A DNA stretch of 64,000 bases. It comes from Gonapodya prolifera JEL478. Taxonomy: Eukaryota > Monoblepharomycota > Monoblepharidomycetes > Monoblepharidales > Gonapodyaceae. The translations under genes were made by a program, and so were the position numbers. Positions 1 through 48,252 of this stretch are shown piece by piece. Location of the stretch: assembly GCA_001574975.1 (NCBI GenBank), contig KQ965744.1, positions 1 to 64,000 on the forward strand. Direction: 5' to 3'. Numbering within the stretch: position 1 is the stretch's first letter; the number at the start of each line of letters is the position of its first letter. A model generated the notes under the pieces. The model had not been told where the DNA came from. It made no database searches and saw only the letters and a list, made by a program, of their open reading frames with translations.

Positions 1-244
1 CGTCACCCAGATATGATTCCGGGACACAAGGTCCTATTGCAAATCATCAAAATATGGAATGGGTAAACATCGTCGCGTTCTAGTATGGATTCTGACTTAG
101 AGGCGTTCAGCCATTATCCTGCGCATGTTAGCTTCGCGGCACTAGCTGTTCAGCTAACCGCAAATACCAATTATGCGAATCAACGGTTCCTCTCGTACTA
201 AGTTGAATTACTATTGCAACAACACTTCATCAGTAGGGTAAAAC
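1..244 (-). rRNA. 28S (large subunit) rRNA, 3'-region fragment
   Basis: The plus strand reads as the reverse complement of the conserved 3' part of fungal 28S rRNA. It contains the sarcin/ricin loop neighbourhood (complement of AGTACGAGAGGAAC) and the segment GATTCTGACTTAGAGGCGTT. Conservation is good up to about position 244 (GGGTAAAACT) and then stops abruptly; normal 28S would continue with the complement of the GACAGGTTAG segment. The fragment runs off the left edge, so its 3' end is not seen. It is either the border of the rDNA array or a displaced, 5'-truncated copy. Identity is certain; functionality is doubtful because of the break. Confidence 0.9.
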
Positions 245-1360
245 TTTTGAAATTTGTTTCTTTCCTTCCCCAGTCATTGTATGGACAGGGTCAGTTGTGC
301 AACTGTAATCATGTTGTTGTGCTTCTTCCCTGACTGCAAGTAATGTACACTGTGAATGACCACAAGCTTAATCATGTACATCATATTGTTGCTAAAAAGT
401 ATTAATACAATGTTGGCAACTTTATTGCAAACAAGGAGGCTGGGACTGCAATGGTTCAACTAACCCATGCTGATGACAGCTTCAAGTGAGTTGTGGATTT
501 AAGGTTCCACCTACCAGTGACATACCAACTCTATCCCAAACCTCAATTAACATCTTGTATCGTAATTAAGGAATATGATGTGCAGAGGGGTCAGTAAGGC
601 AAGACACATGAACCCTATGTGTGGGAGTAGAACATTCATCTCCACAATCCATGATCATGTTCAAATTCCATCTCCAACACCAGCCCTTGCACCACAACTC
701 CAATTTTATCGAAAATAAGGAATTTGTGGCAGCGACTGCTCTGCAAGTCCAGGTGCATGACACCAGTGCTTGGATAGTGAAATACTTTCGCGGGGGTCAC
801 TGCACCATGCTCCAACACCACTCCGACCGCCACCACTTGCTCAAAGTCGCTAATTTTATCGTGGTTTAATGGAAGCTGGGAACATGATGGGTCTTTTAGG
901 CCATTTGCTTGATGCCCGCAAGTGTATTGCACAAACTCCCTTGTCGGATGGCGGTCCACCTTCCCACACAATTCCAAAGACCGCTGCTTACGCCATGACA
1001 CCAACGCTATTTTACGCAAGGAAGGTTCAGTCGACACAGGTTGGTAAAGGTGACTGTGTGCTTGGGCGGTTGAACGAATCGCTGCAGGACCCATTCCAAC
1101 GCCATTCGGACTATGACATCTTGCATTATGATGCAAATTTCACGTTTCAGAAGTAGTCCGGGGCCGTGTATGGCGTTTGATGTCTTGAGAGAAGTCAATC
1201 AACTTTCCAAGCATCTTCCAAACATCGCGATCGATGCATTATGGACCTCGGGGCTACACGAGACGCAATCTCGTGCTCCCGTTTTTCTCCAGGCTAACTT
1301 AGAACTTCACTCATTCCCCCCTTTTTTTTTTGGTTGGAACTGTACACCTTGAAGTTCCGC
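245..1360. other. No gene recognised between rRNA fragment and repeat array
   Basis: About 1.1 kb with only short overlapping open frames on both strands (longest 166 codons, minus), none with recognisable protein character. Base composition changes from AT-rich (245-560) to mixed. I see no match here to the modules of the array that follows. Confidence 0.5.
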
Positions 1361-4045
1361 ACAAACTTCAATCGATTGATTCACGGGCACATGATGCGAA
1401 CCAGCGCATTCCCCTCGCGCTTCCTTCCACAGCTGTCGCTTCAAATCGGTGGATCCCGCCGCCTGCCTGTCTGTCGCCGACTCCCTCAGCTCGCGTCCGA
1501 GTTGTGTTTTGGCGATTGGTGAGTGATTCCCTCGATTGGCCGCGTTTCCAACGTCAAATTTCACCGGCGGATTGATTTTCTACTCTCCTTTCTTCCCCGC
1601 GCGATTCCCCGTGAAGCTTCGTATCTGAGGCAGGAATGCTCCCGGTCTCGCTCTCGGTTGAATGATCCCGCTCAAGTCCCAACACCGAACAAATGCTGCA
1701 GAGAACGGAGTAGCCAGACGGCAACAAAGCGCGTGAGTGGCTTGATGGCACGGAATCTCCTCCCGTCCCTGGATTCCGCTTTGGTGTTCAAAACACTCAA
1801 AACACCTCACACTCAGTCACGGCATCCGCCGCCGGGCGACTTGCAACTCGCGTCGAACCCCACGGAATCCTCCACCATTTCTAGCACTGTACGCTTCCTT
1901 ACCCTCCGCCAAGCCACAATTGGAGCCAAACGGTTGCGGGAAACTTGCAACGTGTCCGCCCTGTTCGTCACCCGATGTTTCGGAAGGCACATGAAACGGT
2001 CGGCGGCGAATGATAAGGTGGGTTTCAGGGAACCGCTGCAATGGCGCACCATTTGTCGCACGATGGTGGTGCTGTTCATGGAGTGGGGTTTCCTCAACCA
2101 ACCGGGTATGGCGCAAGATGTCACTTTGTCCCTTCCTGTCTCCGCAATGGCCCTCCTTTATCCTCGAATGTCAAGGCTATAAAATTTCTGTTTCTTTGCG
2201 CACGGCCTGTCTGAATTCTCCTGTCATCCTGCGTCCCCCGTCCCACTCGTGCAACGTTGCAGAAACACTCCTCCCATGTTCCTTCACCTTTCTACGCCGC
2301 GTTGACTCTCCCTTCCATCCACTACAACGTCACAGCCACCTGGCGTCTCTTCCGTGCTCTTACAGCACCCCTGCCTGAGACTTCACTCCCGCCAACACAC
2401 ACCCCATCCCCTACGGACACAAGGACAACCTCAAGCATTCCGCCTGCCATCCCCACGACACACTCATAGTGGCACGTTGGGCCATGTGCTCCGCCGCCGC
2501 ATCCCCCGCCCGCCCTTCCTGCGCGCCAGATCGTTCACGGCACCCCAGTCACCAACACTCCAAACCGAGCGTCCCTGACAATCCCCAACTGCCACGCCCC
2601 ATATAACCCTTAACTTGACACGGACGGCAATCCACTTCGCGGCTTACGGCCCCGTTGTCCACCACCAACCCGCCCCCACACTCTTCCACTTCCAACCAAG
2701 GCGGTTTCCTCCGGAGCTCCGGGCGTCGTCAGGGGTGGACGGGACGGCGGAAAAGGAACAGGAGCAGAGCGGTGCTGGCGATTTCAGCATGCGATGGGAA
2801 TGGAGGCGTGGGAGTCTGAGCGCACAGCGAGAGTGCCAGGAGGCGTGCGTGAGATGTGCGATGTGCAGAGAGGGGAAGGGCGGCCGGGCGAACCTCGTCA
2901 ATCCAGCCCATGCAGTTGAGTCATACACACGGCACTCGCGGCGTGGGGCTGGCGCGGGTTGGCGCTGATAACGTGGAGATGGGCGAGAGGTTGGAGGCCG
3001 TGCGCAAAGGTGGATACGGGCGTGGCGACCATGGGACGCCGATCTTACGCACGTGGGAACTTCTGCGTGGACGGTGGCGGTGCTGGCACGGGTGTTGGTG
3101 TGGGGACGAAATGCGCCGAGTCCCTCCTCTTGCCGGCTGCACTAGTCATGCGCCGAACCCACTCTTGTCACACCCGTTCTCGGGGGCGATGCGCAACGCT
3201 GGAGCAGGGTCTGGGACTGTCTGGACTGCACTTGGTGGCGGGGGGTGGCGGTACGCGGTGTGCGGGGACTGCTGGACGGAGGGTGGGAGTGATGCGCGAC
3301 ACCGTCGCAGAGTTTGGGATTGACTGGACTGCGCGTGGTGGCGCGGATGTGGTACGCGGTGTAGTGGGGACTGCTGGATGGACGGATGGGGGACTATTAC
3401 CAACGAGATCGCTCCCATCCCAAGCACGCACCACCCCAACCCCCACCACACCACCGGGTCAGCGCTCGCACTGCCATGGACAGTGTCAAGCAGCGTATGT
3501 GACGCATTCACGTAATACGAGCTTGCGGAAGGCGTGGGGATCACGCCGAGCATGGTTTTGCCATGTGCAGCGGGGAAACTGGTGTGCCGGATTGAGAAGG
3601 CCCCCGCCCTTCTCCTCCCTCCGCTTTGCACGCATGCGTTTCCCCCACTCGCCTTGCGCTCATGTACATGGCGCTGGCGGCGCGGGCAATGTAGAGATGG
3701 GCGAGTTGTTAAAGGCTGCACACGAAGGCGTGTGGGGTCGTGGCGGTTGTGGGTCGCACGCTTTCGGGCGTGGGAAAGGGAAAAGATGCTGGCGTGATGG
3801 TCGGGATGGAGACAGAATGCGCCGAGTTCCACGCCCACACCCTGCTGCATGGATTTCCAAGCATCTTCCAAACACCCTCCAAATGTTATCCGAAGCGCCA
3901 TCTCATGTTTCCATTGTTCTTCTTTATTCTCTTTGTGTTAAAAACTTAACTTATATCCTTTGCTATATTGTTGCCTTGAGCGCAGTTTGAAAAATGCTTT
4001 ATGTTTTATCTCAATGCGGCTGAGTGGGGGCTTCCTTTTCTGTTG
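1361..4045 (+). repeat. Diverged repeat array, unit 1 (modules A-B)
   Basis: The unit starts with the A module around TTCAATCGATTGATTCACGG (from about 1368), repeated at about 4052 and, more weakly, at about 12955. Further matches in the same order are the GGTGAGTGATTCCCTCGATT donor-like site at about 1517, the GAAGCTTC stretch near 1613, the CCTACGGACACAAGGAC stretch near 2410 and the CTGACAATCCCCAACTGCC stretch near 2575. A sub-repeat of about 180 bp (GGAGATGGGCGAG ... GCGCCGAGT) occurs at about 2970-3125 and again at about 3685-3830. Long open frames here (for example 343 codons at 2959-3990) look like GC-rich chance frames. The strand given only follows the donor-like sites. Confidence 0.6.
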
Positions 4046-6900
4046 CTCACGAAACTTCAATCGATTGATTCACGGGCATAAGAAGAGCCAGCACGTTCGC
4101 TGCGCCCTCTCTTCCAAACCTCTCGTCGCGAATCAATGGATCCCGCCGCTTGCCTGTTTGTCGCCGATTCCTTCACCTCGGTCGGAACCGCGTCTTGGAT
4201 GGGTGAGTAATTTCCTCGATTGACAGCGTTTCGCGTACGAACGTCACTGGCTTACTGTTTTTTTCTGCACTCTCCTCTCTTTTTCGGCGCCGTTCGTCGT
4301 GAAGCTTCATGTCTGGGCTACGTTGTGTCGACACTCGGTAGAATGATTCCACCCAAATCCCATCAACGAGTGATGCTGCGACAAACGGAGCATGAAACGG
4401 AAACGAGGCGCGTGAGTGTCATGGAGCGCTTGCGCGGAATCTTCTTTTCTGTGAAGTCCAATTTGGCATTCACCACACTCATGGCACTCAGTCACACCAA
4501 CCGCCACCATGCATCTTGCGACACGCCGAGCCGCCACGAGTCCTTTGCTGTTACCGCTCCGCTTGCGCTCGTCGCCACCGTCGAGCCACAACAAGAGTCA
4601 AAAGTTGGCTGCACATTTGCAACACGTCCACCCGGTATCCAACGCGATGTTCCAGGCAGCGCATCAGCGGTCGTCGGGAGATTATAAAGTGAGTTTCGGA
4701 GAGCCGTGATGCAACATTTTTCGGGAGATGATGGAACAGTTAATTGCGTGGTGGTTCGACAACCGAGGGGAAATGGCACGAGGTGTGGCTTTATTATTTC
4801 CTGCCGTGCGCTTCGTGAAGATTCGTGTTTGCGCTCAATCGGTCAAGGGTTTAACAGTTTCGTTTCTCACTTAGTCTGTCCAAATCACCTTTCACCCCGC
4901 CACCGCCTCCCCCCAACCTCGCACAACACTCCTACCATTTCCCTCCTCCTCCGTTCTCTGCGCTGATCCCCCTCCCCCTTGGGTCTACCGCAACGCCAAG
5001 GCTACCTGAACCCTCATCCGCACTCGCACAGAATCACTGCCGCCGACTCTCCTCTCCCATCACTCACTACCCATCCCCTACGGACGCAAGGACTGTCTCA
5101 AACACTCCGCCTGCCATCCCCGTGCCACACGCACTCCGCCCCCTCGCGCCTCTCCCTACCTTCCCGCGTGCCGCCATTGTCCACTTCACCCTTGTCACAA
5201 AAATACAATGCCCTGTGTCTCAACAGGGTTTCTGACAATCGTCAACTGCCTCCCGCGCACTTGTTACTTGACCCCGACAACCACCCTCGCCCACGGGTAC
5301 CGTTGTCCACCGCCACCTCACCCCACGTCTCCTCTACTGCCGGCGGCGCACAACGTATCATCTGGGTAGGACTGACCGGTGGAAGAAGGGACGAGACCAG
5401 GGCACCCTCAGCCATTTTAGCGCGAATGGGTACGGGGGTGTCGGACTCGTTGGGGTGGGCCGGGAGGAGAATACCCTCGTCCCTCCAACCCTTCCCGCAT
5501 CCGCAACCGTGCGTCTCGGCCGCTTTCCCTGCGTTCGTACCTAGAGACCCCCGGCTTGCTCACTTCTTCCTCCTCCCTGCGGTGGTTTTGCAACGTGCGC
5601 GGCACATACAGCCCCGATCAGAGCCCTCGGTCGGAACACGAGAGGCCTTCACGCGAGGCATCCACACGGCGCTCGCGGCATGTGTTGGGAGGGACGGTGT
5701 GGGGATGTACGTGCGGTCGGGATTTTTTTCGGTGGGTGTTGGGTAAACGTGGGCTGAGGGATGGGCGTCGTGGGATAGATGATGGAGTGTGTTCCACAGA
5801 GCATCTTAAATTTTCGGGGAGTATTTTTCTACATCGCGCGTGTGAATGGAAAATTACGGATGGACGTGGAGTCTCGGAGTCGTGTACCCCAGGTGGAGCG
5901 TTAGTAAAGCGTGCAGCATGATGATTGTATGGAGGACGCAACGAACTAACAAATTGGAGGTGGGTAGTGGAAGTGAGGCGTATAGTGGAGGGACGCAACG
6001 GACGAAAAACTGCACGTGAATTGCGGAAATGAGGCGAATGTTGGTTGGTCGCAAATTGGAATAGACACATGGTCGGTTGGATCAGCGAAGACGAGGTCAC
6101 ATGCGTGAGGAGTGGTTGCAAGTGAACGTGTTCTGTCTCTGAAGAGCATTACGTTGGTCCCTTGTTTCACTCAGCTCTTCCTTCATATACAGATCCGTGT
6201 GCACGGCACACTTCCCCCGACACTCTCGCATCCACCCCCCTCGCTGCCACAGAAATACCTTTGCCTCACAAAACGCATTTTTCTCACTCCACGGCCTGTC
6301 CTCCACCCTTCAATCATGCGATGGTCTGCTCCTCCCAACCCCCGTCTCCAGCCGATGCCGCCCGCTCCATTTTCCCACCGCGCTGAGCGCTTTCAAACCC
6401 ACAGGCCATCGTGGAATGCAGTCATTGCGGCGCAGCGGACGGGCTGGGATGTTGGGATGCTGCAACGGGGCTGGGGGGTGGGGAGACATGGCGCTGAGTC
6501 CCGAGCACACACCCCGCTGCCCTCGTACGTGCAAACCCACTTTTGAGAAGCGATTCGATATGCGCAACGCCGTGACCGGGGTCGGGAGCGTGTGGGACGC
6601 GTTGGATGGAGTGTGGATCCCACCGAGCCTGGGGTTTGTCGTGCGCAGGTGGGAGGTGCTCGAGTGTTTGGTTGGGGCGCGACAGGTCGAGGTCGGTGGC
6701 AGTGGCGGTGATAGGAAGAATTTGGTAGCGTGGATCCAGTGGCTGTTTGAAGTGTGGCGGGGTGTGATGGGTGAGTGCAATTTGGCGCACGTGCATCTCT
6801 GGCCTGCAAGTACTCACAACCGGTCATCCGCACCCCAGACCACTGACGCTCACACACACTAAGCTCCTTCCCGCGCATAAAGAACCAGCGATTGCCTCCC
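4046..6900 (+). repeat. Diverged repeat array, unit 2 (modules A-B-C-D)
   Basis: A module 4046-4530 aligns to 1361-1850. B (CTGACAATCGTCAACTGCC near 5232) aligns to 2575. C at about 5690-6160 (TGGGCGTCGTGGGATAGATGA, then GAGGAGTGGTTGCAAGTGAA) recurs at 7370, 14230 and 16550. D at about 6170-6870 contains GAGGTGCTCGAGTGTTTGGT and a donor-like GGTGAGTGCAATTTGG at about 6767, followed by CTGACGCTCACACAC and an AAG acceptor-like end near 6883. The frame around 6560-6770 reads VWDALDGVW and EVLECLVGARQVEV, recalling the copy at about 9600, so the D module may once have coded for protein. No intact gene is seen. Confidence 0.6.
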
Positions 6901-6959
6901 CGTCCAGTGTGCCAATGGGCGTAGCCGCCGTATCACGCAGCAAAAGGTCGTAGCACGGT

Positions 6960-8840
6960 TGACGAACGGTGCATGGTGCGTCGGGATGCGGAGAGGATGT
7001 CGAAGTCGACGGGGAGATTTTCAATTGCGTTAAGGACGGTTGCGGGCACGAGGAAGACGAAGAAGGTGGTGGTGGTGGTGGGAGTCGAGAGAACCTGGAG
7101 GTTCAGGATAGCAAGCCGCCACTCCGACCCGCCCTACCTCCTATGCGCACGTGCACGTCTCGCTCGCTCTGCGTGCCGTGCGCTCGCTCACATGGAACTT
7201 GCGGTATGGATTGGTTTGAATGGCGTGTTGATGGCTGGAGGCCCTCCAGGTACACGTTCACATGGCACTGGCGGGATGGCTTGGGGTGGGCGGCGCGGAG
7301 ATGGTCGGAACGTTGCGTGTTTTTGTCAGGTGAGTTTTTTGAGGGGGGGAGGGGTGAGCGATGGACGTCGCGGGATTTAGGATGGAGAGTATCCTGCGGA
7401 GTGTCTCACCTACGCGGAGCGTATTAACGTTGATCTCATGTTTGAGTGGACAATGTACGAACGGGCGTGGTGTCCGTCGGAGGCGAGTGATCTACGTGGA
7501 ACGTATGCGAAAGTCGGGGTGATGACGGGATGGGGGATGTGACGAACGGACAAAATGGACGTATTTCGCGGACGCGAGGCGTATGTTGGTTAATCGCAGA
7601 TTGGAATGGACGGATGGACGACTGAAAGCGTGATCGCAATGTGTGAGGAGGGGTTGCAAAAATCGCCCCGAAGAACGCTTCTGTTGTCCTTGTCCCTCTC
7701 GACTCATTCGTCCCCGATCCCTTTGAACCGCCGTCATCAGCCGATGTTCTCGCCCGGTCCATTCTCACAACCGGTGGTATCAATCCCTCTGTTGTGGGTG
7801 TGGAGTCCACAGTGGCCACAGTGACGCAGAAGACAGCCACACACATGCACCGTCAAGTGTGTTGGTGGCATCCGCAGGATGCAAACCCCTCGCGTGCGAG
7901 CGTGGGAATTTCCGCGAAACGGAAGGTGGCGATGCTGGCGCATGGGTCTGGTTGGGGATGTAAGGCGCCCAGTCCCGCGCGCGCATCATCTTCTATGTGC
8001 GAACCCCTCCCGTGTGCCCATCTCTCCACGCGCAACACCGTGGCTGGGGGCCGAGATCGGGTGGGTAGCACTGTATGGCCCAGTGGTGCTCTGCGGTGCG
8101 TGCGGTGCGTGATGGGGACTGATCGTGGGTGGTGGTGTTTGGGGGTTCTGGCGGACGAGTTGTACCCGGTGCGCTACCGCCGCCGTGCCATTGCTAGTGC
8201 CCCCATAGACATGGTCAAGCGGTCTATGGGATGGCCACGCGACCTTGTGGAGGCCGCCGAGCGTGGAGTTTGCTGTGTATAGATACGAGGTGCTCGCTCG
8301 CTTATTCGGTCAGGGCTCCGCAGGCGATGTCGGTGGCAGTGGCAGTGGTGCTAGGGAGGATATGGGTATTTGAACACAGCTGGCGTTTGAAGTGTGGCGG
8401 GTTGTGATATGTGAGTCTATTTCGGCTCAAGATTACGCACGCGCGTCCGATCACCCCCGCCACACCATTTCTGACGCTCACACACCGAGTACTCCTTCTC
8501 GCGCACAAGAATACCGGAGCGCTCCTCGTTTACATCTACGCATCTTCCAGCCCTTCCTCTCCGCTTTCCCACACGAACTCCGTCACATTGTTCCGCCACC
8601 GCACGCTGTCTTCGACGTCCTCACGATCCTCGCTTCATAATCCGCCACGGATGGACGCCACGGGAGGTTCCTTCGCAGTGCATATGCCCTATCGGCCCTT
8701 CCGGGATCTTGCCTCTTATCAGACTTCCTGCGCAAATCTGGACCATGAACGATGTTTGAGTGATGCGAGTTTTGAAAGGGACCGAGGCATGTGGGTGGCG
8801 TTCTGATGCGAAATCTCTACTTGCCTTTCAAGTCAATGCA
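6960..8840 (+). repeat. Diverged repeat array, unit 3 (late B-C-D, A missing)
   Basis: A long stretch at about 7770-8840 is clearly homologous to 14720-15840. Shared landmarks in order are GTTTCCGCGAAACGGA-like (7907 / 14825), GGGTCTGGTTGGGGAT, CACTGTATGGCCCAGTGGTG (8070 / 14980), AGACATGGTCAAGCGGTC (8208 / 15130), GGTGAGTCTATTTCGG-type donor (8408 / 15330) and GCATATGCCCTATCGGCCCT (8680 / 15690). By eye the two copies are roughly 80-85 percent alike. The C module precedes D (about 7270-7660). No intact reading frame spans the homologous part. Confidence 0.7.
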
Positions 8841-8929
8841 TTTGCTCTGCAGTTCGCCAAACGGTGTGTTTCTTCAACCCCCACCACCCTCCATTTGACA
8901 CCGATTTCCACTAACACCCACAGCCGACG

Positions 8930-9960
8930 CCATACGTCTCCACTTATCGACCACCGCGAACTGGGGCAGCTGTCTCCCCCGCTCAGCCTACCATGCGGGG
9001 AGGACTGAATGGCGGAAGAAGGGCTGGGAGAAGAACGCTCTCGGCGATTTCAGATGGCCCCTTTGCCCCCTCTCAGTCATCCGTTCCTCCTTTTCGCACG
9101 CAATCTTTTCGTTGCACTTGCACCCCATCCGTCCGCACGACACTGGCGGCGTAGTCGGTGTGGGAAGCGCTTAGATGGGTGAAAGGTTGTAGGACGCCCG
9201 CAAAGGAAGGTGCGGTTGTAGTGGCCACGGGACGCAAACTTACCCCCCGTAGGAGTCTCTGCGAAGAGAGGGTGCGAATGCTGGCATCTAGGGGTGGTGA
9301 GAGTCCTGGGCCCAAGTCTTGATAAACTCTACATGCAGACCCCACTCTCATCACACCTCCTCTCGCGGGCCGGATTTGCCATGCGCGCGACGTTGTGGTT
9401 GGATTACGATCGGCTGGGCCGTGCATGTGGCGCAGTGTCGAGGGTACTAGTTTGCGGCGGGAGTTCATGGGGACGTATCATGCCAGTCCGAGCTGCACGG
9501 CGCTTGAGACTCGCACCTACGAGCAGTGCCCGGCTGCGTATGGGACGCGATCGCACAACAAGTGCTTGTGTATGGCATGTGGATTCTGCCGATCTTGGAG
9601 TTTGCGGTGTGCTGGTGTGAGGTGCTCGAGTGTTTGGTCAGGCCGCGGCAGGTCGAGGTCCTTTGTAGCAGCAGTGCTGGCAGGGAGGAGTTGGGCACAG
9701 CGGGCGTTTGAGGTCGGGGCCGGTGTGATGGTGAGTCAATTTCGAAGGTGTCTCCCTGTGCACGTGCTCACAACCAACCGCTTACACCCACCACCACCCC
9801 CCTGACGTTCGCATACCCCGCGCTTCTTCCCATGCATAAGACACCGACGCGCTCCCCGTATGCTCCTGCCCACCTCCCGAATCATTCCTCCCCGCTTTCT
9901 TATGCCGACGCTGCCGTACTGTCCCCGCGACCTTGGGCACGTTCTTGATGTGCTAACGTT
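8930..9960 (+). repeat. Diverged repeat array, unit 4 (partial)
   Basis: About 8940-9060 (CATGCGGGGAGGACTGAATGG, GGAAGAAGGG, CGATTTCAGATGG) matches late B at 5370-5430, 2730-2800 and 13640-13720. About 9150-9300 resembles the 2970-3130 sub-repeat. About 9560-9840 is a D piece: GAGGTGCTCGAGTGTTTGGT, donor-like GGTGAGTCAATTTCG at 9727, then CTGACGTTCGCATACC and an AAG end near 9840. No gene seen. Confidence 0.55.
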
Positions 9961-12954
9961 CCTTGCTTCGTCCGTTCTTTAGCCTTTCTCAACCGGGCGG
10001 ACGCGGCGGGACGGCCCTTCTCAGCGGATAATGCCCCATACACCCTACTGGGGATTTGGTCCGTGCTCAAGACACCCATTTGCTGTTCCAGGGCAAAAAC
10101 TCGGCGAGAGTATCTCTGACCGGTGTGGCAATGGGCGCGGGGTGTATGCCACGCGGCAAGGGCCTTGGCTTGTTCGTGGGTTGGAACGAGGGGTGTGCCA
10201 AGTTTCTGGTCGAGTTGAGAGGCAGCGACAGCGGTAGTGCTGCAGTGGGCGCTGGGTGTGCGGGAGAAGGATGCAAGAGGCGGGAAGAAGGAGGGGAAGC
10301 GGTGATCGGAAGGTTTTTGGTTGAATGAGGCGCGCTGCTTTTCTGGTGGGAGGCGGTACCTTGCCGTACAGTCTCGATAAGTGCGCGCATGGGGAGAGTA
10401 AGAATGCGAGCGCTGACGCGTCAGCATGATGTGCGCGAGATCCTAACATTGGCCCGAGACTCCTCGGCGGAAGAGTTGTGCCTCGCTCAGTAGGCGACGG
10501 GTTTCATGGTTGTATCCTTGCGGTGTGAGCTGGGTGGGTTCGTTCGAAAGAAGGCCTGGGCGGAATGGGTTGCATGGGAAGCGGACTGAAGTTTTGGAGG
10601 TGGGTTGTATTTGGGGGCGGTAGACCACAGGGTCATCGCAAGTCGTCTAATGGTGTTGGTTTGGATTGTAGGAGCGGCATTGCAAGAGCAGAAGCAAGCG
10701 TACAACGCCGTGGTCCGGCATTGGCCCTGATCTCTCCTTTCGACCGCTCGCCGCACCCACACCACCACGACCATCCACCCTTGCGCCACTCCCCCCGTCG
10801 CGCGATTGCTCCGCTTGTCAACGCCCCGCGTCGACCGTCGTGCGAGCTCCGCGGAATGGGAGGTGCAGATGAGTGATAGTCTTGAAGGTGCAACAGGGAA
10901 GGAGGTCTTGAACCCCGCCGCTGACGACGGCGGCGGTTGGAAGAAAGGGTGGACGGGAAAGGGAGAAGAAGCGGAGCGAGTCAAGGCCTCCTTTGAGGTG
11001 GAGCAGGCGGAGGCAGAGCGGAAATGCGCTTATGACTATGGTTGGACGGAGTCTTCGCGACCCAAGAGGCACAGGACCGAAAGATTCACCAACACGGTAA
11101 ATGATACAACGGCCCTGCCCTGCTGCTCCTGAATGTGAGACCCCTTTATGTAGGACTCTGTTTTAGATCGGTGCAGGTGCGAGGAGAGGAGGCGAAGACA
11201 GTGGTGATAGTGGTGATGTCGCTTGGGAGTCGAGAGAGCCAGGAGCTGCAGGATGGCGAGGCGCCCAAGTTTGGGGAAGACCCTCCTTTGAATCTTGATC
11301 GTGCCTGGGCCTGTTACGTCCTTTTGATATCACCCCAGCCACCGACATGCCACACCCAGCTTTTCAACAGGGTTTCCGACAATACTCCACCGCTACCCCT
11401 GCTGCACTCAATGGGCCCAAACACCCACCGTGTCCTCATCCCACGGTTGTCCACCACCAACTTTTCCCCGCTGCTCCACCACCTCCAATCGGGGCGTTTA
11501 GCTCCAAAATTCAAGCCACCATCCGTTGAAGCCTAACCTGGGGAAGAAGAGTGGGACTTCGGAGCGGTGGACGCAGCAGGACAGGTCAGCAACAACGGGA
11601 CCAGACCGCCGTTGAAAGCGACTAGTGGGAGGCAGGACCGTGGGGTGTGGTCCGCGATTATACTTGCACCTCGGGCGAAGGGAGCGCGAGTGTGTGGCGC
11701 TGTCTGCGTGGCTGAGGGGTTTGGACTCATCTACCAGTTGTCCAGTGGCGTGTCGGTGATGCGGTGGGCGGCGCAAACTGGTCCAATTACTGGAGGGATT
11801 CGAGTGACCGTGGATAGAATGATGACGGGACTGGGTGCACTTTGCATGTGTGGGGCGACTGCTTATTGGCAAATGCGACCAAATGTTCACAGAGAAGGCA
11901 CACTGGGAGCAAGACTCCGGACACGGATACAGCAAGCAAATGGGCAGCAGTGGCGACCAGACACCACGTGAACGGTTTGGTGTATGGGTGGAACTATGCA
12001 GAGGAGCACGCTGACTCCGACGTGAAGGCCGAGAATCAGGGACCTTCGCACAGCCGTCTGGTTCGTCTTCCATGGTTGATTAATTGATAACCCCCTTGAG
12101 AGATAGACTGGACTCACAACAGTTCGCAACGGGCAGCTACGGGTTGCATTGTTGACAACTCGCTATTGAACGATACGATACTCCCGACGAAGGATGAACG
12201 GAGGGGAAATGGGGGCTCGCGCGATTGCGTGGCTGGAAGGACTGTACGGGGGCATTGAGAGGCTGCGCGCAACTGATTATAGGAGTGAGGGGTGTGTGGT
12301 GGTGCAGCCTCACGGGGGGGAGGGGGGAATACGGTCACAAGTTGTGGAAACCAGGAATCATCTGCTCTACTGGTCAGACCGTTCTTTTTGTGGCTACCCC
12401 TGTTACTCCTCTCACCGTCTTTGGATCACACCACGGCAATGAAAGAATAGGAGTACAAGATGTCCCTTTACCTCGAATGAAACATTAGCATTCTTGTTGG
12501 GTACCGTAATGACAGTACTGCGTCTGTGGGCCTCTCTGGAGATGTCAGGCGCCTTGACAACAGGGATATCGAGCGCATTACAGAAAGGAAACCACAAGTC
12601 ACGAAAGAGTGCTGGTGTGGTCCTCTGGAATTCAATGAAGTTTGCAGAACGGTGTCAATTTCTACACGAATTTGACTGGAGCACACTGCTTTTCGCTGCG
12701 ACAGGAAATGGAGCTGTTAGAGAAGTCGTAGCACTGCTATCCCATGAATCGGCCTAAATTGGCAATGTCTACTTTCGTTTTACCGATTTGCTTCCCCATT
12801 TACTGCCCCTTCGTTTATGTACAGGTTTGAATAATAAATTCTTCTGAGATGCCGAAAGATAATGGAGAATGGAAAGAAATCCCAATTGAAGGAAGGAAGC
12901 AAAATGTGGAGCAGCAGGTGAGCTCAGGTGCACTTCCTCAGTCCCAGAAAAAAG
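9961..12954. other. GC-rich DNA, mostly unassigned, with one B-module piece
   Basis: Only about 11355-11470 clearly belongs to the array (TCAACAGGGTTTCCGACAAT, then GGTTGTCCACCACCAAC). The remainder carries short, mutually overlapping frames on both strands (longest about 190 codons, 11498-12073 minus) without recognisable motifs. At 12412-12757 the composition is less GC-rich and both strands have protein-like short frames, but no family could be named. I report no gene here. Confidence 0.4.
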
Positions 12955-13772
12955 CATTGATTCATGAGCATCAGAAACAAACAAGCACATTCCCCAACCG
13001 ACTTCCTCTGCGCCTCTCGTTGCAAATCAATGGATCCTGTCGCTTGCCTGTTTGCCGCGGTCCCGTAGGCAACCATCGTCCCCGATGGGTAAGTGATTCC
13101 TGCGATTACCCGCGTTTCACACGTCGAAAGTCATTTGATTATTGGTTTTCTATGTACTTATCCATTTTTCCGGCGCGATTCCTCGGGAAGCTTCATTTCT
13201 GGGGGAGGGACCCCTCGACTCTCGGTAGAATGATGCCGCACAGATCCGAACTTGTTAACGAATTCTGCGACAACGAGTCGCCAAATGGAAACGAGGCGCG
13301 TGAGTGGCACGATGGCGTGGAATTTCCTCCAACCACTGGACTACAAGTGGAGCTTGCACAATTCTCAGTCACAACATGCGCTGCCCCACGCCTTGCGCCT
13401 CGCTGAGCCTCAACGGCTCTCTCTGCTACCACAAGCGCCGTGCGTTCCCGTTCTCACCGTCGAGCCACAACAAGAGCCAAAAGCTCCGAGCAAGTTTGCA
13501 AACACGTCCCCACTGTCGCATCCCTGACCATTCGCAACTGCCACCCAACCACTTCCTCTTGACACCAACAACAGCCCGCGCCAGCGGCCCCCGCTGTCCA
13601 CCGGTCCACCGCCAACCGGGGCGGTTGCCTCTGCTCACGTGCCTTCCGTGGAGGACTGAGCCGCGGAACGAAGGTTAGGAGCAGAGCGCCGATGGTGACT
13701 GCATCGTGGGAAGGAAATGGTGGCACGGGAGTCAAACAGAGGGGGCGGGAGTGGGAGTGGGTCAGGAGAAGG

Positions 13773-13788
13773 CCCCCCCCCCCCCCCC
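13773..13788. repeat. Poly-C tract (16 nt)
   Basis: An uninterrupted run of 16 C lies inside the B module of repeat unit 5. On the minus strand it is a G run capable in principle of quadruplex formation. Length is prone to sequencing error. Confidence 0.9.
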
Positions 13789-15409
13789 GGCCTCCATCCC
13801 ACTCTTTGTCCATTTCGAGCGCACGCGGCCCGCTCCACTCGCCCTGCGCTCGTATGAAGACGTCTACGGGGACTTAACGCGTGCTCTGTTCATCTCCTGT
13901 TCCCCCTCTAAGGGGGAGAGTTGGGGCAGAGCCACGGCACTCACAGCCGCGATGAACACTCTCATCCGAAAACAAGAGGCCCCACACGACGCTCACACGG
14001 CGCTGGGGATATGGGTTGGTACGGGCGTCGCGGGATGGGCGTGAGTGTAGAGATTGGTTGGCGTGGGAGTGAGTCGCGGAGATGGGTGGGAGGGGAGGCC
14101 TTTGTGCGCAGTGTTCACGTGTCACTGTCGAAATGGGTTGGAGGGAGCTGCACGGAGACGGTCGGGAGGTTGGGTGTTATGGTCAGGTGAGTTTCATTTG
14201 AGAGGTAGATGAGGCCGCGCGTGCCGGGGTCCAGGATGGAGGGCACCCCGCGAAGTGTCTTACCTACCCGGAGCGTATTCTCGGGAAGCGTATTAACGTT
14301 GATCGCGCGTGCAAATGGACAACATACGGGAGGGCATGAAGCGATTGACTCATTGTGGATCGGATTCTTGCAAATGTGAAACGCGTTCGTGCAATAATTG
14401 GGAGGGGCGTAATGAAGAGACGAAGTGGTGGTGGATTGGGGAAGCAAAGATTAGGTTGATCAATCACGAGTTGGAAGGGGCAAGCACACGGATGGATGAC
14501 CGAAAGCGTGGTGACATGAGAAAGCGTTGCAAGTGAAGGTGTCTTGTCCCTTGTCCCTGAAGAGCAGTACATTTGACCTTTTCCCACTGGATTTAATTCT
14601 TCACCAGTTGAAGTCTTCCCGAACCCGCACATAGACCCGTGCGACACTCTCCTCTTCCCGACCCCCTTGAACCACTCTCTCCATCTGCCAACGTCCTCAC
14701 CCGCTCCATTTTTACAACCTGCGGTATCGGTGGAATCCGCGGTAACTACTAGCGGCACCACGCATGCACAGTCAAGTGTGGTCGTGCATCCGCAGGACGC
14801 AACCCCTCGCGTGGGAGCGTGGGAGTTTCCGCGAAACGGAGGGTGGAGATGCTGGCACGTGGGTCTGGTTGGGGATTAAAGGCGCCTAGTCCTGCGTGCG
14901 CATCATCTGTGCACGAAGCCCCCCAACCCCCCGAGGGACCGTGCAACACCGTGGCTGGGGCCGAGATTGGGTGGGCAGCACTGTATGGCCCAGTGGTGCT
15001 GTGCGGCGAGTGCGGTGCGTGGTGGGAAGTGATCGTGGGCGGCGGTGGAACCGGGGTTCTGGCGGACCAGGTTGAACCCATGCCACCTGCACGGTATGCC
15101 ACCGCCGCCGCGCCATCTCTAGTGCCCCCACAGACATGGTCAAGCGGTCCTTGGGAAGTGGTCACGCGACCTTGCGGAGGCTGCCGAGCGTAGAGTTTGC
15201 TGTATCCAGATGCGAGGTGCTTGATGATTGGGTCAGGGCTCCGCAGGTCGATGGTGGCGATGGCATTGGTGGTAGGTGGGACGCGGGCATCTAGACAGAG
15301 CTGTTGTTGGAAGTGTAGTGGGTCGGGATAGGTGAGTCTATTTCGGCGCAAGATTACAAACGCGCCCCCGCTCATCCCCGCAACAACCCTTCTGATGCTC
15401 ACCCACCCA

Positions 15410-15705
15410 GCGCTCCTTGTGTGCTGTCACGTTGTTCGCCACCGCACGCTGTCTTCCATGTGCTCACCTTCCTCGCTTCATTACCTGCCCAGGTGGATGC
15501 AACGGGAGGTCCCTTTGCAGCGCATATACCCAGCGCTCCTTGTGTGCGCTTACGTATCTCCCGACCCTTCCTCTCTGCTCTCTTACACTTGTCGTCACGT
15601 TGTCCGCCACGGCACGCTGTCTTCGACGTACTCACCTTCCTCGCTTCATTACCTGCCAGGGTGGATGCAACGGGAGGTCCCTTTGCAGCGCATATGCCCT
15701 ATCGG
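15410..15705 (+). repeat. Internal tandem duplication in D module
   Basis: The string CCCAGCGCTCCTTGTGTG starts at about 15407 and again at about 15530. CGCACGCTGTCTTC is at about 15440 and GGCACGCTGTCTTC at about 15609. CTCACCTTCCTCGCTTCATT followed by GGTGGATGCAACGGGAGGTC occurs in both halves, ending with GCATATA / GCATATG. The homologous unit at 8510-8700 carries the segment once, so the duplication is specific to this copy. The second half keeps an insert (about 15550-15600) that the first lacks. Confidence 0.8.
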
Positions 15706-15959
15706 CCCTTTTGGGATCTTGCCTCTGATCAGACAATCCTGCGAAACTAGAGGAGAAGCGTCTGAGTGATCGGAGTTCGAAAGGGAACGAGGAATGTGGG
15801 GTGTTCTGATGGGAAATCTCCACTTGCCTTTCAACTCCACTCTTGTGTGCTCTTCAGCATTGTCTCCCGAGGCTGAAAAGCGGGAACAACTTGGGTTGTG
15901 ATTTGGCAAGGTGTTCGCGTCACAACAACTTCCATCGTGGCGGAGCACAAGAAAGGCGT

Positions 15960-17600
15960 CTCGCGCTGCTCCGTCCATGGCATGTGCGTAGTTCTGCTTC
16001 AAACCTGCATCGCTGAAAATCCTGAATGTTTCTTCCTGCACCGCACTCGACCCCTCCATGACGCACTATGTTTCCACCGACCCCTCCACTTGCCTCGCTC
16101 TGTCGCGTTCATCTCCGTTCCATCTTTTGAAACACTGCAATTTCTACCTTCTGGGCTGGTTCAGCCCAACTCCCGCAGTCTCCCCTTCACCACCCTACAT
16201 TGCCCGCCTCCGCTGCTCTGATACACCCGAAACGCTCTGGGCACTCACTCCCCTCGGCTCCCACAACGACTGGGTGACGTCCTTTGTGCACGCTACGACG
16301 TCCCGTCCTGCTGAACCCGACCTTCCCGCATGCCAGTATCGCCATCGACCCCTCACAAACACGAATCGCCTGGTGTTTCAATGGCGTCTCTGACTATTCT
16401 CAACTGCCACCCCACACTACCCTGAGTTTTACCCCAACACATGCGAGATGTTCGCATGGCACTGGCGGGATGGGATGGGTTGGGGTAAGGGGCGCGGAGA
16501 TAGGTGGTTGGATGTTTTGTTTCGGTTGGATTTAGGAGAGGCTCTTGGGTGAACGATCGACGTCGTGGGATATGATGGAGTGTGCTCCGCGGAGCGTCGT
16601 ACCTACATGGAGCATATTTTCGCGAAGAGAATTAATGTTCATCTCGTGTGCGAGAGTGGACAGTATCCGGATGAGCGTGGAGTCCGTCGAGGCGAGTGAC
16701 CTACTTGGATCGTATTCATGCGGAGCAAGTCGGGTTGCCGACCAGATTGGGGACGTGACCAAAAGACAAAATGAAATGTGCATTGCGGAAGTGGGGAGTG
16801 TGTTGATTGATCGCGAGTTGGAATGGACAAATGGACAGATGGATGAACGAAAGCGTGGGAGGATTTGCTGCAAGCGAATGTGTACTGAAGAGCAGTGCCG
16901 TCGTCCTCTTCCCTTTGGACTCATTTCGTCAGACATCAATTTCTTCCCCACCCGACACGATGCCACTGCCCACACACATTTCCTCGTCCCCGGGCCTCCC
17001 ACCCGCTCTTACCCCTTGCGACGCTCTCCTGCTCCCAACCCGCTTGAACACTCAATTCGCCACCCGACGTCTTCCCCAACTTCACCCTCACGTCCAGCGG
17101 TGGCAAACTTGTACAGGCCTGTGCGGAACGCGACCAAGCCGCCTATTGCAAGGGGCGATCCGAACGAGTGCACCGGCGGGTACGGTCTTGGCGGGTCAGG
17201 CAAAATTTGCGCACAGGAACTTCTGCAAGAGGAGGATGGGTATGCTGACACGGAGGTCGGGGTCAAGATGGAAGGCACCGAATTCTGAGCGTATGGCTCG
17301 CTGTTACGCGACCCCCTTTTGGGGGCCGACTCGCCAATGTGATGGCGTACGTCCAGGACCCACGGGGTGTCAACGCTCACGCCCCCACGGACAAGGCCAC
17401 GTGGCAAGCGTTTGAGGGTGGCATGGGGGTCCCGCCGCGCGTGGACTTCTCCATGCGCGGGTTTGAGCCGTGAGATGCTCCTCCCTGTATGTGCTCTCCC
17501 GCTCACCCACACCACAGCCCACCTGACGCCCACACACCCCGCCCTCCTTCCCGCACACGAGGACTGAGGTGGCACAGCTGGGGCCTCGGAGCTGGCGAAG
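15960..17600 (+). repeat. Diverged repeat array, unit 6 (partial B-C-D)
   Basis: About 16380-16440 resembles B (TCTCTGACTATTCTCAACTGCC). About 16445-16930 is C (GGCACTGGCGGGATGGGATG, CGACGTCGTGGGATATGATGG, then GGAATGGACAAATGGACAGA and CTGAAGAGCAGT). About 16930-17590 is a weaker D copy, with a donor-like CGTGAGATGCTCC near 17470 and CCTGACGCCCACACACC near 17522, ending in an AG acceptor-like site near 17563. No intact gene seen. Confidence 0.5.
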
Positions 17601-18950
17601 AATGCACGAGATGGGAAATGGGAAGGAAGGACAAAAGGCGATGGAGGTGGTGGCGGAAAATTTGATCGGGCGAAGTGTGTTCAAGGCTCCTTCTCACGTG
17701 GCGCTCTTCGCCTCAAAACCAATCCTCCCTCTGTGTTATCTGCTTATCGACAACGCCTCACGCCCTTCTCTCCAGCATCGAGCCGGGACCAGTTGCAAAT
17801 TTGGCTGCGTTGACTGTTATTCCCTATCGCCACAAATTACTTCGCGGCTGGTGTGGGCTCCGGCCGTATAATCCCAGCGACACGTCACCCCGACTGTGCA
17901 GCCTTTTCTCTCCATCTGACCATCACCCAAACCCAGGCGATGCCTCGTCGTCCCTCTCCAGCCCACCAACCCCACCAACCAGGGGGTATTATTCGCAGAA
18001 TTCCCTGCATGCTTGCATCCTACTCTGACCACCCGTTTCCTCTGGAACCACCCCCTTCAGCACCTCTACCTTTTCCACCGCTGCCCACTCTACGCTCCCC
18101 TCATTGACTTTCACTCACTCTATTACCACCTTAGCTGACACGAGTGCACCACTGGGCGTGGCTTCTGCACCAGCGCGATTGGGAGACATCGGCATCTTTG
18201 GTTTGCAACCTCCCAATTTGTCACCACCTCGAACCGGCCTCGGATCACGGCGACCAATCTGCCGCCAATCGAGGACAGAACGGTGGAAAGAGGATGTCGT
18301 GGTTGGCTGGGCGGAGCGGAGCGGAGGCACAAGGAAGAATTAGAGAAGTGGCAGGGGGCAAAGGAATTGGGGAGGAACCGAAGCTGGGAAGCGAGACTAC
18401 GTTTTAGACGGGGTGGTCGGGATGGGATGGGTGGAAAGGGCGGGAAAGCGAGCAGCGCGATTGGCCCTCCCGCCCCCTGTGTGGATTGCGCCATGGGAGA
18501 GTGGGACGATAATCTGCAGCATACCATGGAGGGGTGGATGTTGTAATGAAAGTAGAGGGTGCTCGGCCACTGGCAAAGGACTGCATGCTGAATGGGGAGG
18601 ACCAGTTGGAAACCAGCACTTGTCCCCATTGATGAGGTGGAGCTTGGCGCTTGCAAGGATTGGACGGCGGTGTAGAGAGATGATGTTATGGTGAGCGTCG
18701 CTTGCTCTACATTTGTGTATGAATAATTGACTGCATGATGTGTACCAGGTGCGACCCATGTCGGTGGATCAGGTCTTATGAATCTGACACGTGTGTGCCA
18801 CTCGTCACACCACGCCGACGCAGGCCAAAGAGAATGAAAAACAAATGAAATGACGGGATTTAGAATGTGCTTTTGCATGTTTGGATCAAACTCGGACTTA
18901 CCGTGTCCAAAGCTGGATGCAAGTAGCTGTGTTAGCAGCGTCAAGTGGAA
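17601..18950. other. Unassigned region after repeat array
   Basis: The largest open frame is 294 codons (18123-19007, minus). Its translation is rich in Ser/Pro/His with no domain signature and most of its length is antisense to other open frames, so I do not call it a gene. No clear repeat-module match was found. Confidence 0.4.
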
Positions 18951-20580: not shown

Positions 20581-20925
20581 GATTCATATGCGTGATGGAC
20601 ACACGGGGCTCTACTTGCTCAGATGCACCGTCATTCTATTTTGCGTTCATATTGTAGAAGAGAAGAACATGGACCAATAAAATGAAAACACCCAAGCTTC
20701 TCGAACTAAACGTATTGTGGAGTGCCGGTTGCTTGGGTGGGAGCGTTGCGAGAGACTTCTGTGAACCCTGACTCAACTCTGGCCAGCGAAAGATGAAATC
20801 GCAGAATCTTCACTGTCACCTGTACGATACCAGAACAGGAAATGGAAATGATGGAGCAGCAATTCAGTCTCCGCAATATCCACCAATGTGACTTCTGCCA
20901 AGAGATGTGAGACTTCTCATCTGAA

Positions 20926-21396
20926 CCCCTCTTGACATTTGCGAGTGACATCCAAACGATGTCCATGTTCTCTGATACCATAGTAGCTGTTTGTGAGCAC
21001 GGTGCGTTCCTCACCCCAATCCAAGCTCTCGTGCACTCCCAGCACATCTCCCCAAATCAAGACCTCTTAAAATCGCCCCCGAGTTCACCTTTTTTGTGCT
21101 TCCCGGGTAGCAGGGTAGTTTTCATCAAGTTCACGTCTCGTTGGCGCCGCAAAAGTGGTGGGATAGGCATCGAGCTCCAAGACCAAATCCCCGAGACTAG
21201 AGGCACCCCAGTCACCAGAATTAAAAATCTCAGGCTTAGAGCCAACCGACGTTATCATATCTCGCTGGGGGGTCGGCACGTGGAAAGAGACTCACATCTG
21301 TCATCTGCCTGTGTTATAGATGCAAGTTTGATCCACCTTCCCAGCTACGGCCATATGCGCGGAAAATTGCCGCTTCCCGTCCGACCAGGATACTGA
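20926..21396 (+). pseudogene. GT61-like glycosyltransferase C-terminal fragment
   Basis: The frame contains FASDIQTMSMFSDTIVAV then EHGAFLTPIQAL, which fits the GT61 signature in which a Gln-Met helix precedes a HGA-x-LTN loop. After a gap that may be an intron (about 21045-21085) it continues with FLCFPGSRVVFIKF and a WRR motif, comparable to the PGS-x-V-x-E stretch after HGA in GT61 enzymes. Nothing recognisable as the N-terminal half (membrane anchor, substrate region) is found upstream, where the dispersed repeat lies. GT61 enzymes are Golgi glycosyltransferases. I judge this a truncated remnant; the family call is tentative. Confidence 0.35.
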
Positions 21397-21559
21397 CATG
21401 CCTGATTTTCGCGAGTTATGAGCCGATTGTCATGAACTTTTAGGCCCTTTTTTTCGTGAACCAAAGACCCGACCAAGGCAACCAAGCCCCGACCAAAGTC
21501 ATCAACAATTCCACCAGTCAACTAAACAATCGGGTTGTAAACATCATCATCAGCCGAGC

Positions 21560-23122
21560 ATGGCCTACACACGATTCATGGATCAGGATGAAAATGCCAC
21601 CCGCCGTCCGTCATCTCTAGCCCTGAAACTCTCATTCTCCCTGTCTCTTCTCTGCTGCGGAGCACTTGCCGTGATACTAGCCTACATCCTTCTCTTGCCT
21701 ACCCCACCGAGGAAGGGCATTGTAGTGGGACCTCATGTGGTCCATACCTTGGAACATGGATGCCGGGGATTTCTCACCGACACTAAATCCTGGGCAAATC
21801 TGCGTACAGCATGCAGAAGGCCAGCGCCAAGAAGTGTACTGACGAACAGCTTGGCCACGTGTATAAAGCTCCTGGAGGATGAGATTGACCAAAGATTTGG
21901 GTCAGAGATTTTTTCTGAAAGTGATTTCATTGCTGTTTCAGAACCACAGAACAGTCCTTGTTACCTAGAGAGGCAAGGAATCTGAGCGAGGCGCAATATC
22001 GCGAATGAAAGCTCTCATACAAATTTCAGAGATTACCTTATTCTTATGGGTCACTGCTCCAATGATTGTCAGAGGGGACTAGAAGCATTCTTTGACGCTG
22101 CAGAGGTTGCCTGCGGAGAACATGTCTGTGGCTGTCGAAGTATTTGGTTCCTGATTGAACTCAAAAAGTTAATCTCCAAATCAGAACCTGGTGTACAACG
22201 TCTCTTTCGACGGATATGATAGCATTTTTCATTGAACTGATGCCCAGTCAATCTTGTCAAGAAGATTTGGATCGTTCATGCGTTTAGCGAAACCTCAACA
22301 AAACCTTATCATTCGTGATGTGCGAAGCCTCTTTGGTGCCAGAATTGCAGCAGAATGCGCCAAACAAAAAGAAATGGAATACATTGCTGAGCTTCGAGTT
22401 AATTTATCATCTCTCCTCAAACTTGATTCCATCATGACGGGTGCACGATTGTACGTACCTCAGAAAGATCCCGCCCTGGATCAGGACAATGTGACAGATG
22501 GCATTGTTTGTTCGCCTGGGTAAGAGCTTATAAATTCTGTCATTTTCATCTCCTTGTTATGGCATTCCACTTTCTGACTTCTTCAGATTGTTCCCTCTCG
22601 CATCAGACGGCTGGGACCTTATGTCTCTCAAGTTCGGCAATCTTTCAATCAACGTCACTGAACAGTTCTCTGATCATCTTTTAAATGCTGACACAATAAT
22701 TGATCGATCGAAAGTTACTGCGTGTTTCAATAGTACACGTACGGGAACACATCAAACTGGGCTGCGAATTACTTCAGGTAGATGGGAGAACACGCCGGAA
22801 TTCAAAATGTCTGAAATTTCGGATGAGCAGAAAGCTGAACTTGAGTGTTCATGGTGCGAAGTGGTCCGCAGGCATATCCCTTGAATGGCTTCATAATTGA
22901 TCCGAATGTTTTCGCTTGATGAATACCTTCATGCAGCGCCCAGAATATCCTCTTGTCGCTCACAACATCCCAGCAACAACTTCGACCTGGATTGCTTGAT
23001 TTAGAGAAACTTGAGCGCGCCCAAAGTCTCACGGAGCTCATATGCAGTGGCGCGGGTGATTGGATTGGCTGGTTGGCGAGGAATGACATGAAACAATTCA
23101 ACCGGCGGTAATATGGATGATT
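21560..23122 (+). CDS. Type II membrane protein, unknown family, apparently frameshifted
   Basis: The first exon begins at ATG 21560 with a cytoplasmic Arg-containing tail, then a signal-anchor helix (about residues 22-46, LALKLSFSLSLLCCGALAVI core), predicting a Golgi/ER type II protein. Further coding stretches are about 22027-22192 (HCSNDCQRGLEAFFDAAE, Cys-rich), 22248-22519 (from acceptor CCCAG to donor GTAAGA) and 22587-22850 (after CTTCAG, N-glycosylation sites NVT and NST). Beyond 22850 protein-like sequence continues (RSGPQAYPLNGFIIDPNVF, then YPLVAHNIPATTSTW, then AGDWIGWLARNDM) but in changing frames without good splice sites. The first junction is also not in phase. Either introns or real frameshifts are involved; a decaying gene is likely. 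Family not recognised. Confidence 0.4.
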
Positions 23123-24900: not shown

Positions 24901-24978
24901 GAACGCGCGGCACCAAACAAAACTCCACAACCCCCCAGCAACAACCCACAAAACCAAATCCTTCTCCCCACAAAACAA

Positions 24979-26149: not shown

Positions 26150-26150
26150 T

Positions 26151-48110: not shown

Positions 48111-48143
48111 GATCTTGTGACTGGGAGGGAGTAAATGCAGGGC

Positions 48144-48188
48144 GGGGGGGGGGGGGGGGGGGGGGGGGGGAGGGGGGGGGGGGGGGGG
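48144..48188. repeat. Poly-G tract (45 nt, one A)
   Basis: 27 G, one A, 17 G on the plus strand, located 64 nt upstream of the PARG-like start codon and immediately followed by TAAGTC, so that the last Gs create a GGTAAGT splice-donor-like site. The run could form G-quadruplexes; its length may be mis-assembled. Confidence 0.9.
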
Positions 48189-48252
48189 TAAGTCAAGGCC
48201 ACAGTGAAAGGGGCACTCACAGCACAACAGCGGACAGTGAAGACATCGCCCA

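What the first reader, a model, noticed from the sequence alone, without database searches (positions are those of the whole stretch)
1361..17600. Tandem array of decayed units with conserved splice-like signals
At least six partial copies of an ordered A-B-C-D unit fill 16 kb. Coding frames are not conserved, yet equivalent positions carry donors GGTGAGT/GGTAAGT: A at 1517, 4202, 13086; C at 7326, 14185; D at 6767, 8408, 9727, 15330, 17470. In D each is followed after about 60-90 nt by CTGAC/CTGAT plus a CACAC/CATACC pyrimidine-rich stretch and then an AG such as GCATAAAG, GCACAAG, GCATAAG or GCACACGAG. This looks like a family of spliced transcription units, either dead genes or noncoding RNAs, amplified next to rDNA.
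Basis: partly seen in the sequence, partly recalled or inferred. Interest (0 to 1): 0.75.

Follow-up and report, generated by a model that had tools for sequence, protein, structure and literature searches.

The report
Decayed duplicated flank of ribosomal DNA
Next to the ribosomal RNA genes this genome carries a non-coding block, copied in tandem and onto a second rDNA-bordering contig, that has been drifting apart; its splice-like sites look mostly inherited from shared ancestry, and whether any is still used is untested.

Summary
The ordered units are real: pairs align at 67-82% (one at 92%) over 1354-17,557. GGTRAGT is exact at 8 of the 10 listed donors; 8408 reads TGTGAGT, 17470 CGTGAGA. 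The window starts contig C14. Contig C84 also starts with the 28S 3' part (99.6% identical over 245 bp), then shares the flank in mostly the same order, its main blocks at 73-78%. Seven own-genome DNA searches found the block only there, bar one 89-bp match. Pfam gave only sub-cut-off hits for the 10 of 29 array ORFs sent; changes lack codon periodicity and 115 of 134 indels are not multiples of three. Changes since the C14/C84 split cluster, but not at the same places in the two tandem copies tested. The A donor is GTRAGT in 5 of 6 copies, a second GTGAGT in 6 of 6, the C donor in 2 of 5; the D signals are complete as described in 3 of 7, by looser rules in 4-5. Best reading: an old rDNA-flanking duplicon decaying with little detectable selection. 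A dead spliced gene as its source is possible; live spliced RNA is unlikely but untested.

The parts
1..245 (-). 3' part of 28S rRNA, 5'-truncated; contig C14 starts here
   Evidence: Rfam LSU match 69-223 at 154.6 bits; 99.6% identical to C84:175-419
246..881 (.). C14-specific filler between 28S and the shared flank; in C84 the 28S joins the shared flank directly
   Evidence: No C84 match; only C14 in the own-genome search; C84 28S runs to about 454 and the shared flank begins at 451
882..1353 (.). Start of the flank shared with C84
   Evidence: C84:451 onward, part of a 1791-column match at 72.9%
1354..2600 (+). Unit A1-B1 (donor-like GGTGAGT 1518-1524; second GTGAGT 1733-1738)
   Evidence: 67% to 4042-5133; 76% to its C84 counterpart
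4042..5270 (+). Unit A2-B2 (donor-like GGTGAGT 4202-4208)
   Evidence: 78% to its C84 counterpart
5640..6135 (+). C copy 1 (GGTGGGT at the donor column)
6603..6880 (+). D copy 1 (GGTGAGT 6770-6776)
7256..7659 (+). C copy 2 (GGTGAGT 7329-7335)
7840..8834 (+). D copy 2, long form (TGTGAGT, GT at 8411)
   Evidence: 79% to 14759-15837 in two pieces
9569..9839 (+). D copy 3 (GGTGAGT 9730-9736)
10085..12734 (.). Further flank shared in pieces with C84:20827-21752
   Evidence: 70-74% identity, same order
12956..13509 (+). A copy 3 (GGTAAGT 13088-13094; stop in the would-be first exon)
14113..14511 (+). C copy 3 (GGTGAGT 14186-14192)
14759..15837 (+). D copy 4, long form (GGTGAGT 15331-15337), with an internal tandem duplication (15426-15531 and 15594-15699, 92%)
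16450..16887 (+). C copy 4 (GGTTGGA at the donor column)
17484..17557 (+). D copy 5 remnant (no GTRAGT; CGTGAGA just upstream)
17688..17804 (.). Last stretch shared with C84 (22369-22485)
   Evidence: 75%

Best explanation
The stretch 246-17.8 kb is the flank of a ribosomal DNA array. An ancestral flank grew by tandem duplication into A-B-C-D units. The flank was then copied, or exchanged, onto a second rDNA-bearing chromosome end, now the start of contig C84. Since then the two have diverged with little detectable selection, while the rDNA beside them was kept uniform by concerted evolution. The splice-like signals are mostly features shared by descent. Shown: the 28S edge on both contigs, the mostly colinear shared flank, its confinement to these two places as far as the searches reach, and the lack of a codon signal. 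Inferred: that both contigs border live rDNA arrays on different chromosomes, the order of events, and that the block has no present function beyond spacing rDNA from genes.
For: C14 and C84 both begin with the 28S 3' part, 99.6% identical over 245 bp, while the adjoining flanks differ: 882-2596 with 451-2195 at 72.9%, 3521-5978 with 2978-5522 at 73.6%, 6049-6403 with 5525-5885 at 77.7%, pieces of 10085-12734 with 20827-21752 at 70-74%. The 28S fragment's only other genome match is 44 bp on C20. A 5.8S primer pattern has no match at up to 1 mismatch, so the rDNA array itself appears not to be assembled. Own-genome DNA searches with seven stretches of the two flanks found them only on C14 and C84, apart from one 89-bp 74% hit on C19. 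A1 pairs with A1 (81%) and A2 with A2 (83%) across contigs, against 66-70% between A1 and A2, so that tandem duplication came first. No codon periodicity: largest chi-square 5.6 in 127 windows; 19 of 134 indels are multiples of three. Pfam on 10 of the 29 array ORFs of 150 aa or more gave only hits below cut-off (best E 0.02); on 6 of the 8 of L002, none. Substitutions since the C14/C84 split do not cluster at the same places in copies 1 and 2 (r -0.06 to -0.02). Segment identities lie between 73% and 81%.
Against: Decay is not even: within each lineage substitutions cluster more than shuffled (copy 1: p 0.003 and 0.02; copy 2: 0 of 2000 shuffles), and 100-bp windows range from 61% to 87%; misalignment or conversion tracts may add to this. 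A is slightly slower than its surroundings: 79.8% against 75.3% around copy 1 (p 0.04), 80.7% against 77.4% around copy 2 (p 0.11); with my own cut at column 560 the contrast is p 0.016 and 0.001. Columns conserved in all four A-B sequences cluster more than shuffled (p 0.002-0.009). The third A copies do not pair across contigs (67%; C84_A3 is nearest C14_A2 at 73.5%), so colinearity fails there. Donor-like motifs exceed chance on one strand. That the contigs lie on different chromosomes is inferred from unlike inner flanks (30 kb of C84 examined); no chromosome map was seen.
Confidence: 0.6

Rival explanations
1. Dead spliced genes: A is the 5' end of a former protein-coding gene (short exon with an ATG, an intron of about 100 nt, second exon, second donor), with C and D later exons; the gene was duplicated beside rDNA and died before or during the spread. 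This concerns where the unit came from and is compatible with the best explanation.
For: In A, an ATG or GTG followed by similar peptides precedes the donor-like site in 6 of 6 copies; the stretch from there to an invariant GAAG is 98-102 nt in all six; the 44 nt before it are 70-82% pyrimidine; exon-1 changes lean to third positions (14, 17, 24), not significantly. Donor windows rank 17 of 709 (A), 25 of 406 (D) and 27 of 583 (C). A kinase gene in the window has a GTGAGT...CTGAC...GCAG stretch that looks like an intron.
Against: The would-be second exon is read in different frames in different copies; the joined reading is stopped in 4 of 6. Exon-2 changes have no periodicity (35, 30, 28). 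The would-be acceptor is GAAG rather than YAG. No intact relative was found by DNA search, and no Pfam family in the 10 ORFs sent.
Confidence: 0.2
2. Live spliced non-coding RNAs from the rDNA flank, comparable to the spliced transcripts of the human distal junction.
For: Position beside rDNA and sharing between two rDNA-bordering contigs; one-strand excess of donor motifs; A donor GTRAGT in 5 of 6 copies and a second GTGAGT in 6 of 6; D GTGAGT in 5 of 7, one of them on C84; A changes slightly less than its surroundings.
Against: C donor in 2 of 5 copies, the D set as described in 3 of 7. A general intron-like composite is no commoner than in shuffles (2 against 0.79, 17.5% of shuffles reach it). 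Little covariation in A (term -0.02; 6 of 52 predicted pairs with a double change) and no Rfam match at E up to 1. No shared slow places between copies 1 and 2.
Confidence: 0.08
3. Remains of a mobile element, for example a retrotransposon that inserts into 28S, amplified in tandem.
For: The flank is joined to a 28S cut at its 5' side; units are tandem and partial.
Against: No reverse transcriptase, integrase or other family above cut-off in the 10 array ORFs and 6 C84 ORFs tested; no further copies found elsewhere in the genome; only one side of the 28S is seen, so no insertion can be shown.
Confidence: 0.08

Closest known systems
Human NOR junction regions (distal junction DJ and proximal junction PJ)
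   Same: Abut rDNA arrays and are shared by several rDNA-bearing chromosomes; the DJ carries spliced polyadenylated transcripts (PMC6942050, passages seen)
   Different: Human DJ contigs average about 99% identity over one stretch and fall below 90% over the next 100 kb (passage); here the main shared blocks are at 73-78%. The human DJ has large inverted repeats (figure legend); here the array's self-matches are direct. No transcript is known here.
Segmental duplications beside rDNA and at chromosome ends in general (recalled)
   Same: Tandem and inter-chromosomal copies of gene-poor sequence
   Different: Found only at two rDNA edges by the searches made
28S-specific retrotransposons (R1, R2 and the like; recalled)
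   Same: Sequence joined to a broken 28S
   Different: No element genes in the ORFs tested, only one 28S side seen, no other copies found

Membership tests
rDNA (NOR)-flanking duplicon, general kind | Directly adjoins the rDNA array | tested here: met
   28S at the start of C14 and C84; in C14 with 636 bp of its own in between
rDNA (NOR)-flanking duplicon, general kind | Shared by more than one rDNA-bearing flank | tested here: met
   Mostly colinear matches; placement on different chromosomes is inferred
Human DJ/PJ type | Homogenised between chromosomes | tested here: not met
   Main blocks 73-78%, segments 73-81% without gaps
Human DJ/PJ type | Large inverted repeat | tested here: not met
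   Array matches are direct in the self-comparison of the window; one 55-bp inverted match between C14 and C84
Human DJ/PJ type | Spliced polyadenylated transcripts | not testable with these tools
   No RNA data
Family of spliced genes or RNAs | Donor conserved in all copies of a unit | tested here: inconclusive
   GTRAGT in A 5 of 6, C 2 of 5, D 5 of 7
Family of spliced genes or RNAs | Donor, branch and acceptor complete and aligned (D) | tested here: inconclusive
Family of spliced genes or RNAs | Coding signature in the would-be exons | tested here: not met
28S-inserting retrotransposon | Reverse transcriptase domain | tested here: not met
   10 of 29 array ORFs and 6 of 8 ORFs of L002 against Pfam
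28S-inserting retrotransposon | 28S on both sides at a fixed site | tested here: inconclusive
   Only the 3' side of 28S is assembled

The most novel reading that the evidence does not exclude
The A unit is the promoter and first intron of a spliced non-coding RNA made from rDNA flanks, kept on both rDNA-bearing chromosome ends while the rest of the flank decays: a counterpart, in a distant eukaryote, of the spliced transcripts of the human distal junction.
Probability: 0.06. Interest if true: 0.7.

Novelty: new member of a known kind. Interest (0 to 1): 0.3.

Why it matters
Flanks of rDNA arrays are often missing from assemblies (general knowledge). Here two survive in one genome, and they show a sharp step: 99.6% identity inside 28S, about 73-78% in the shared flank outside. 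That marks where homogenisation of rDNA stops and offers a natural clock for how long two rDNA edges have been apart. It also shows how copies of a decaying block can look like conserved splice signals to the eye.

Tried and rejected
Coding frames: 127 windows of six pairwise alignments (four C14-C84, two within C14) and the A alignment gave no periodicity. Pfam: 10 ORFs of the array (29 of 150 aa or more overlap 246-18200) and 6 of the 8 of L002 gave nothing above cut-off; the ORFs of L001 and the 14 of L003 were not sent. Rfam at E up to 1 over 246-18200: nothing. Consensus folding of A: covariation term -0.02. Sequence model of A over the window and 30 kb of C84: the six known copies, and three more hits at E 0.23, 1.5 and 7.7. 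Test for shared slow sites after the C14/C84 split: none. The search for 18S failed twice for technical reasons; a 5.8S primer pattern was used instead. Paper searches for rDNA flanks, fungal or general, showed no direct precedent in their listings, of which I saw titles and abstract beginnings only; the last returned no paper. I did not establish the organism.

For this I lowered the best explanation from 0.65 to 0.6, and raised live spliced RNA from 0.06 to 0.08 and the novel case from 0.05 to 0.06.

Full report
What was checked. Self-comparison of the window confirms the units, in direct orientation, at 67-82% identity with one younger pair at 92%. Eight of the ten listed donors are exact GGTRAGT, displaced by 0-3 nt; the sites at 8408 and 17470 are not. 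GGTRAGT occurs 8 times on the + strand and twice on the - strand of 1361-17600 against 1.58 expected from 200 shuffles; GTRAGT 15 and 7 against 6.34; a composite tuned to D 3 and 1 against 0.17; a general intron-like composite 2 and 1 against 0.79, reached by 17.5% of shuffles. Counted by unit, GGTRAGT is in 3 of 3 C14 copies of A, 0 of 2 of B, 2 of 4 of C, 3 of 5 of D. The excess therefore stems from three ancestral sites.

Where it lies. The window is the start of contig C14 of a 47.6 Mb, 207-contig assembly. Bases 1-245 are the 3' part of 28S on the minus strand. A second contig, C84 (222,826 bp), starts the same way: its 28S part covers about 8-454 and reaches the 28S 3' end. The two 28S parts are 99.6% identical over 245 bp. 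Beyond them C14 has 636 bp of its own, and then both contigs share a mostly colinear flank: main blocks 72.9%, 73.6% and 77.7%, shorter pieces 66-87%. The third A copies break the pattern: they are only 67% alike, and C84_A3 is nearest C14_A2 (73.5%). C84 carries about 13 kb with no match to C14 in its middle (7.2-20.4 kb), and another decayed repeat (7964-8166 with 16310-16530; 8083-8469 with 24763-25138). A 5.8S primer finds nothing in the assembly, as expected if the rDNA array was left out; two tries to search 18S failed. Neither C14 nor C84 is among the 100 telomere-repeat places listed of 133, which run in contig order to C148.

How widespread. Seven DNA searches of the whole genome with different parts of the two flanks return C14 and C84 only, apart from one 89-bp 74% match on C19. 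The tool warns that weak matches can be missed.

Is it coding, or was it? In six pairwise alignments the largest codon-position chi-square over 127 windows is 5.6 (2 degrees of freedom), and 19 of 134 indels are multiples of three. Pfam gives only hits below cut-off for 10 of 29 array ORFs of 150 aa or more (best E 0.02) and none for 6 of 8 ORFs of L002. In A, a short ATG- or GTG-led reading precedes the donor in 6 of 6 copies, with similar peptides, and the stretch from the donor to an invariant GAAG is 98-102 nt long and pyrimidine-rich at its end. But the reading beyond it changes frame between copies and is stopped in 4 of 6, and the periodicity test over A is null (largest chi-square reached in 97% of permutations). 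A dead gene's 5' end is a fair guess for A, no more.

Are the splice sites kept? In multiple alignments of the copies the donor windows rank 17 of 709 (A), 25 of 406 (D) and 27 of 583 (C), but these sites were chosen because the copies share them. The best window of A is another GTGAGT, about 210 nt further on, kept in 6 of 6; the named A donor is GTRAGT in 5 of 6. In pairwise C14-C84 alignments, background hexamers are kept at 22% (2617 of 12061) and + strand GTRAGT at 8 of 13 site readings. These are 9 places, of which 4 are kept, all in A. One D place counted as lost there is lined up with a C84 GTGAGT in the multiple alignment, so this count depends on the alignment. In C the donor is in 2 of 5.

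Is anything under constraint? After the C14/C84 split, substitutions in copies 1 and 2 of A-B show no tendency to avoid the same places (r -0.06 to -0.02). Decay is not even: within each lineage changes cluster more than shuffled (copy 1 p 0.003 and 0.02; copy 2 0 of 2000 shuffles) and 100-bp windows run from 61% to 87%. Segment identities run from 73% to 81%, A being highest in both copies (79.8%, p 0.04; 80.7%, p 0.11). With my own cut at column 560 the contrast is stronger (p 0.016 and 0.001), and columns conserved in all four sequences are more clustered than shuffled ones (p 0.002-0.009). So a weak, perhaps former, constraint on A cannot be excluded.

Reading. The best account is an rDNA-flanking duplicon: tandem growth first (A1 pairs with A1 and A2 with A2 across contigs), then sharing between two rDNA edges, then decay, with the rDNA itself homogenised up to a sharp edge. 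Structurally it recalls the human NOR junctions, which are also shared among rDNA-bearing chromosomes and carry spliced transcripts (PMC6942050, passages seen). It fails two features of those tested here, homogeneity and inverted repeats, so it is compared with them and not filed under them.

Noticed in passing
window 246-881: 636 bp between 28S and the shared flank in C14 with no other match in the own-genome search; CpG observed/expected in 246-1360 is 0.61 against 0.93 in the array.
   Followed up: partly
L001 7964-8166, L002 6310-6530, L003 4763-5138 (C84): A second decayed repeat family, three partial copies about 8 kb apart; two of the three lie in the part of C84 that C14 lacks.
   Followed up: partly
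L001 about 6912-6950 (C84): A short stretch with GGTGAGTGATTTGC resembling the donor region of unit A, outside any recognised A copy (seen by eye).
   Followed up: no
window 15426-15699: Tandem duplication with a 168-bp step, 92% identical over 106 bp, younger than the other copies.
   Followed up: no
window 26150-26558: Direct repeat (26150-26264 and 26444-26558, 90%) framing a self-complementary stretch 26275-26442: looks like a small inverted-repeat element.
   Followed up: no
window 48140-48188: G-run of 49 bases (91% matches) about 50 bases upstream of a PARG-like reading frame (48241-49731).
   Followed up: no
L003 8295-9329 minus strand (C84 about 28.3-29.3 kb): Long open frame with GHSLGAS, lipase-like by eye; may be the first gene inward of the C84 flank.
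   Followed up: no
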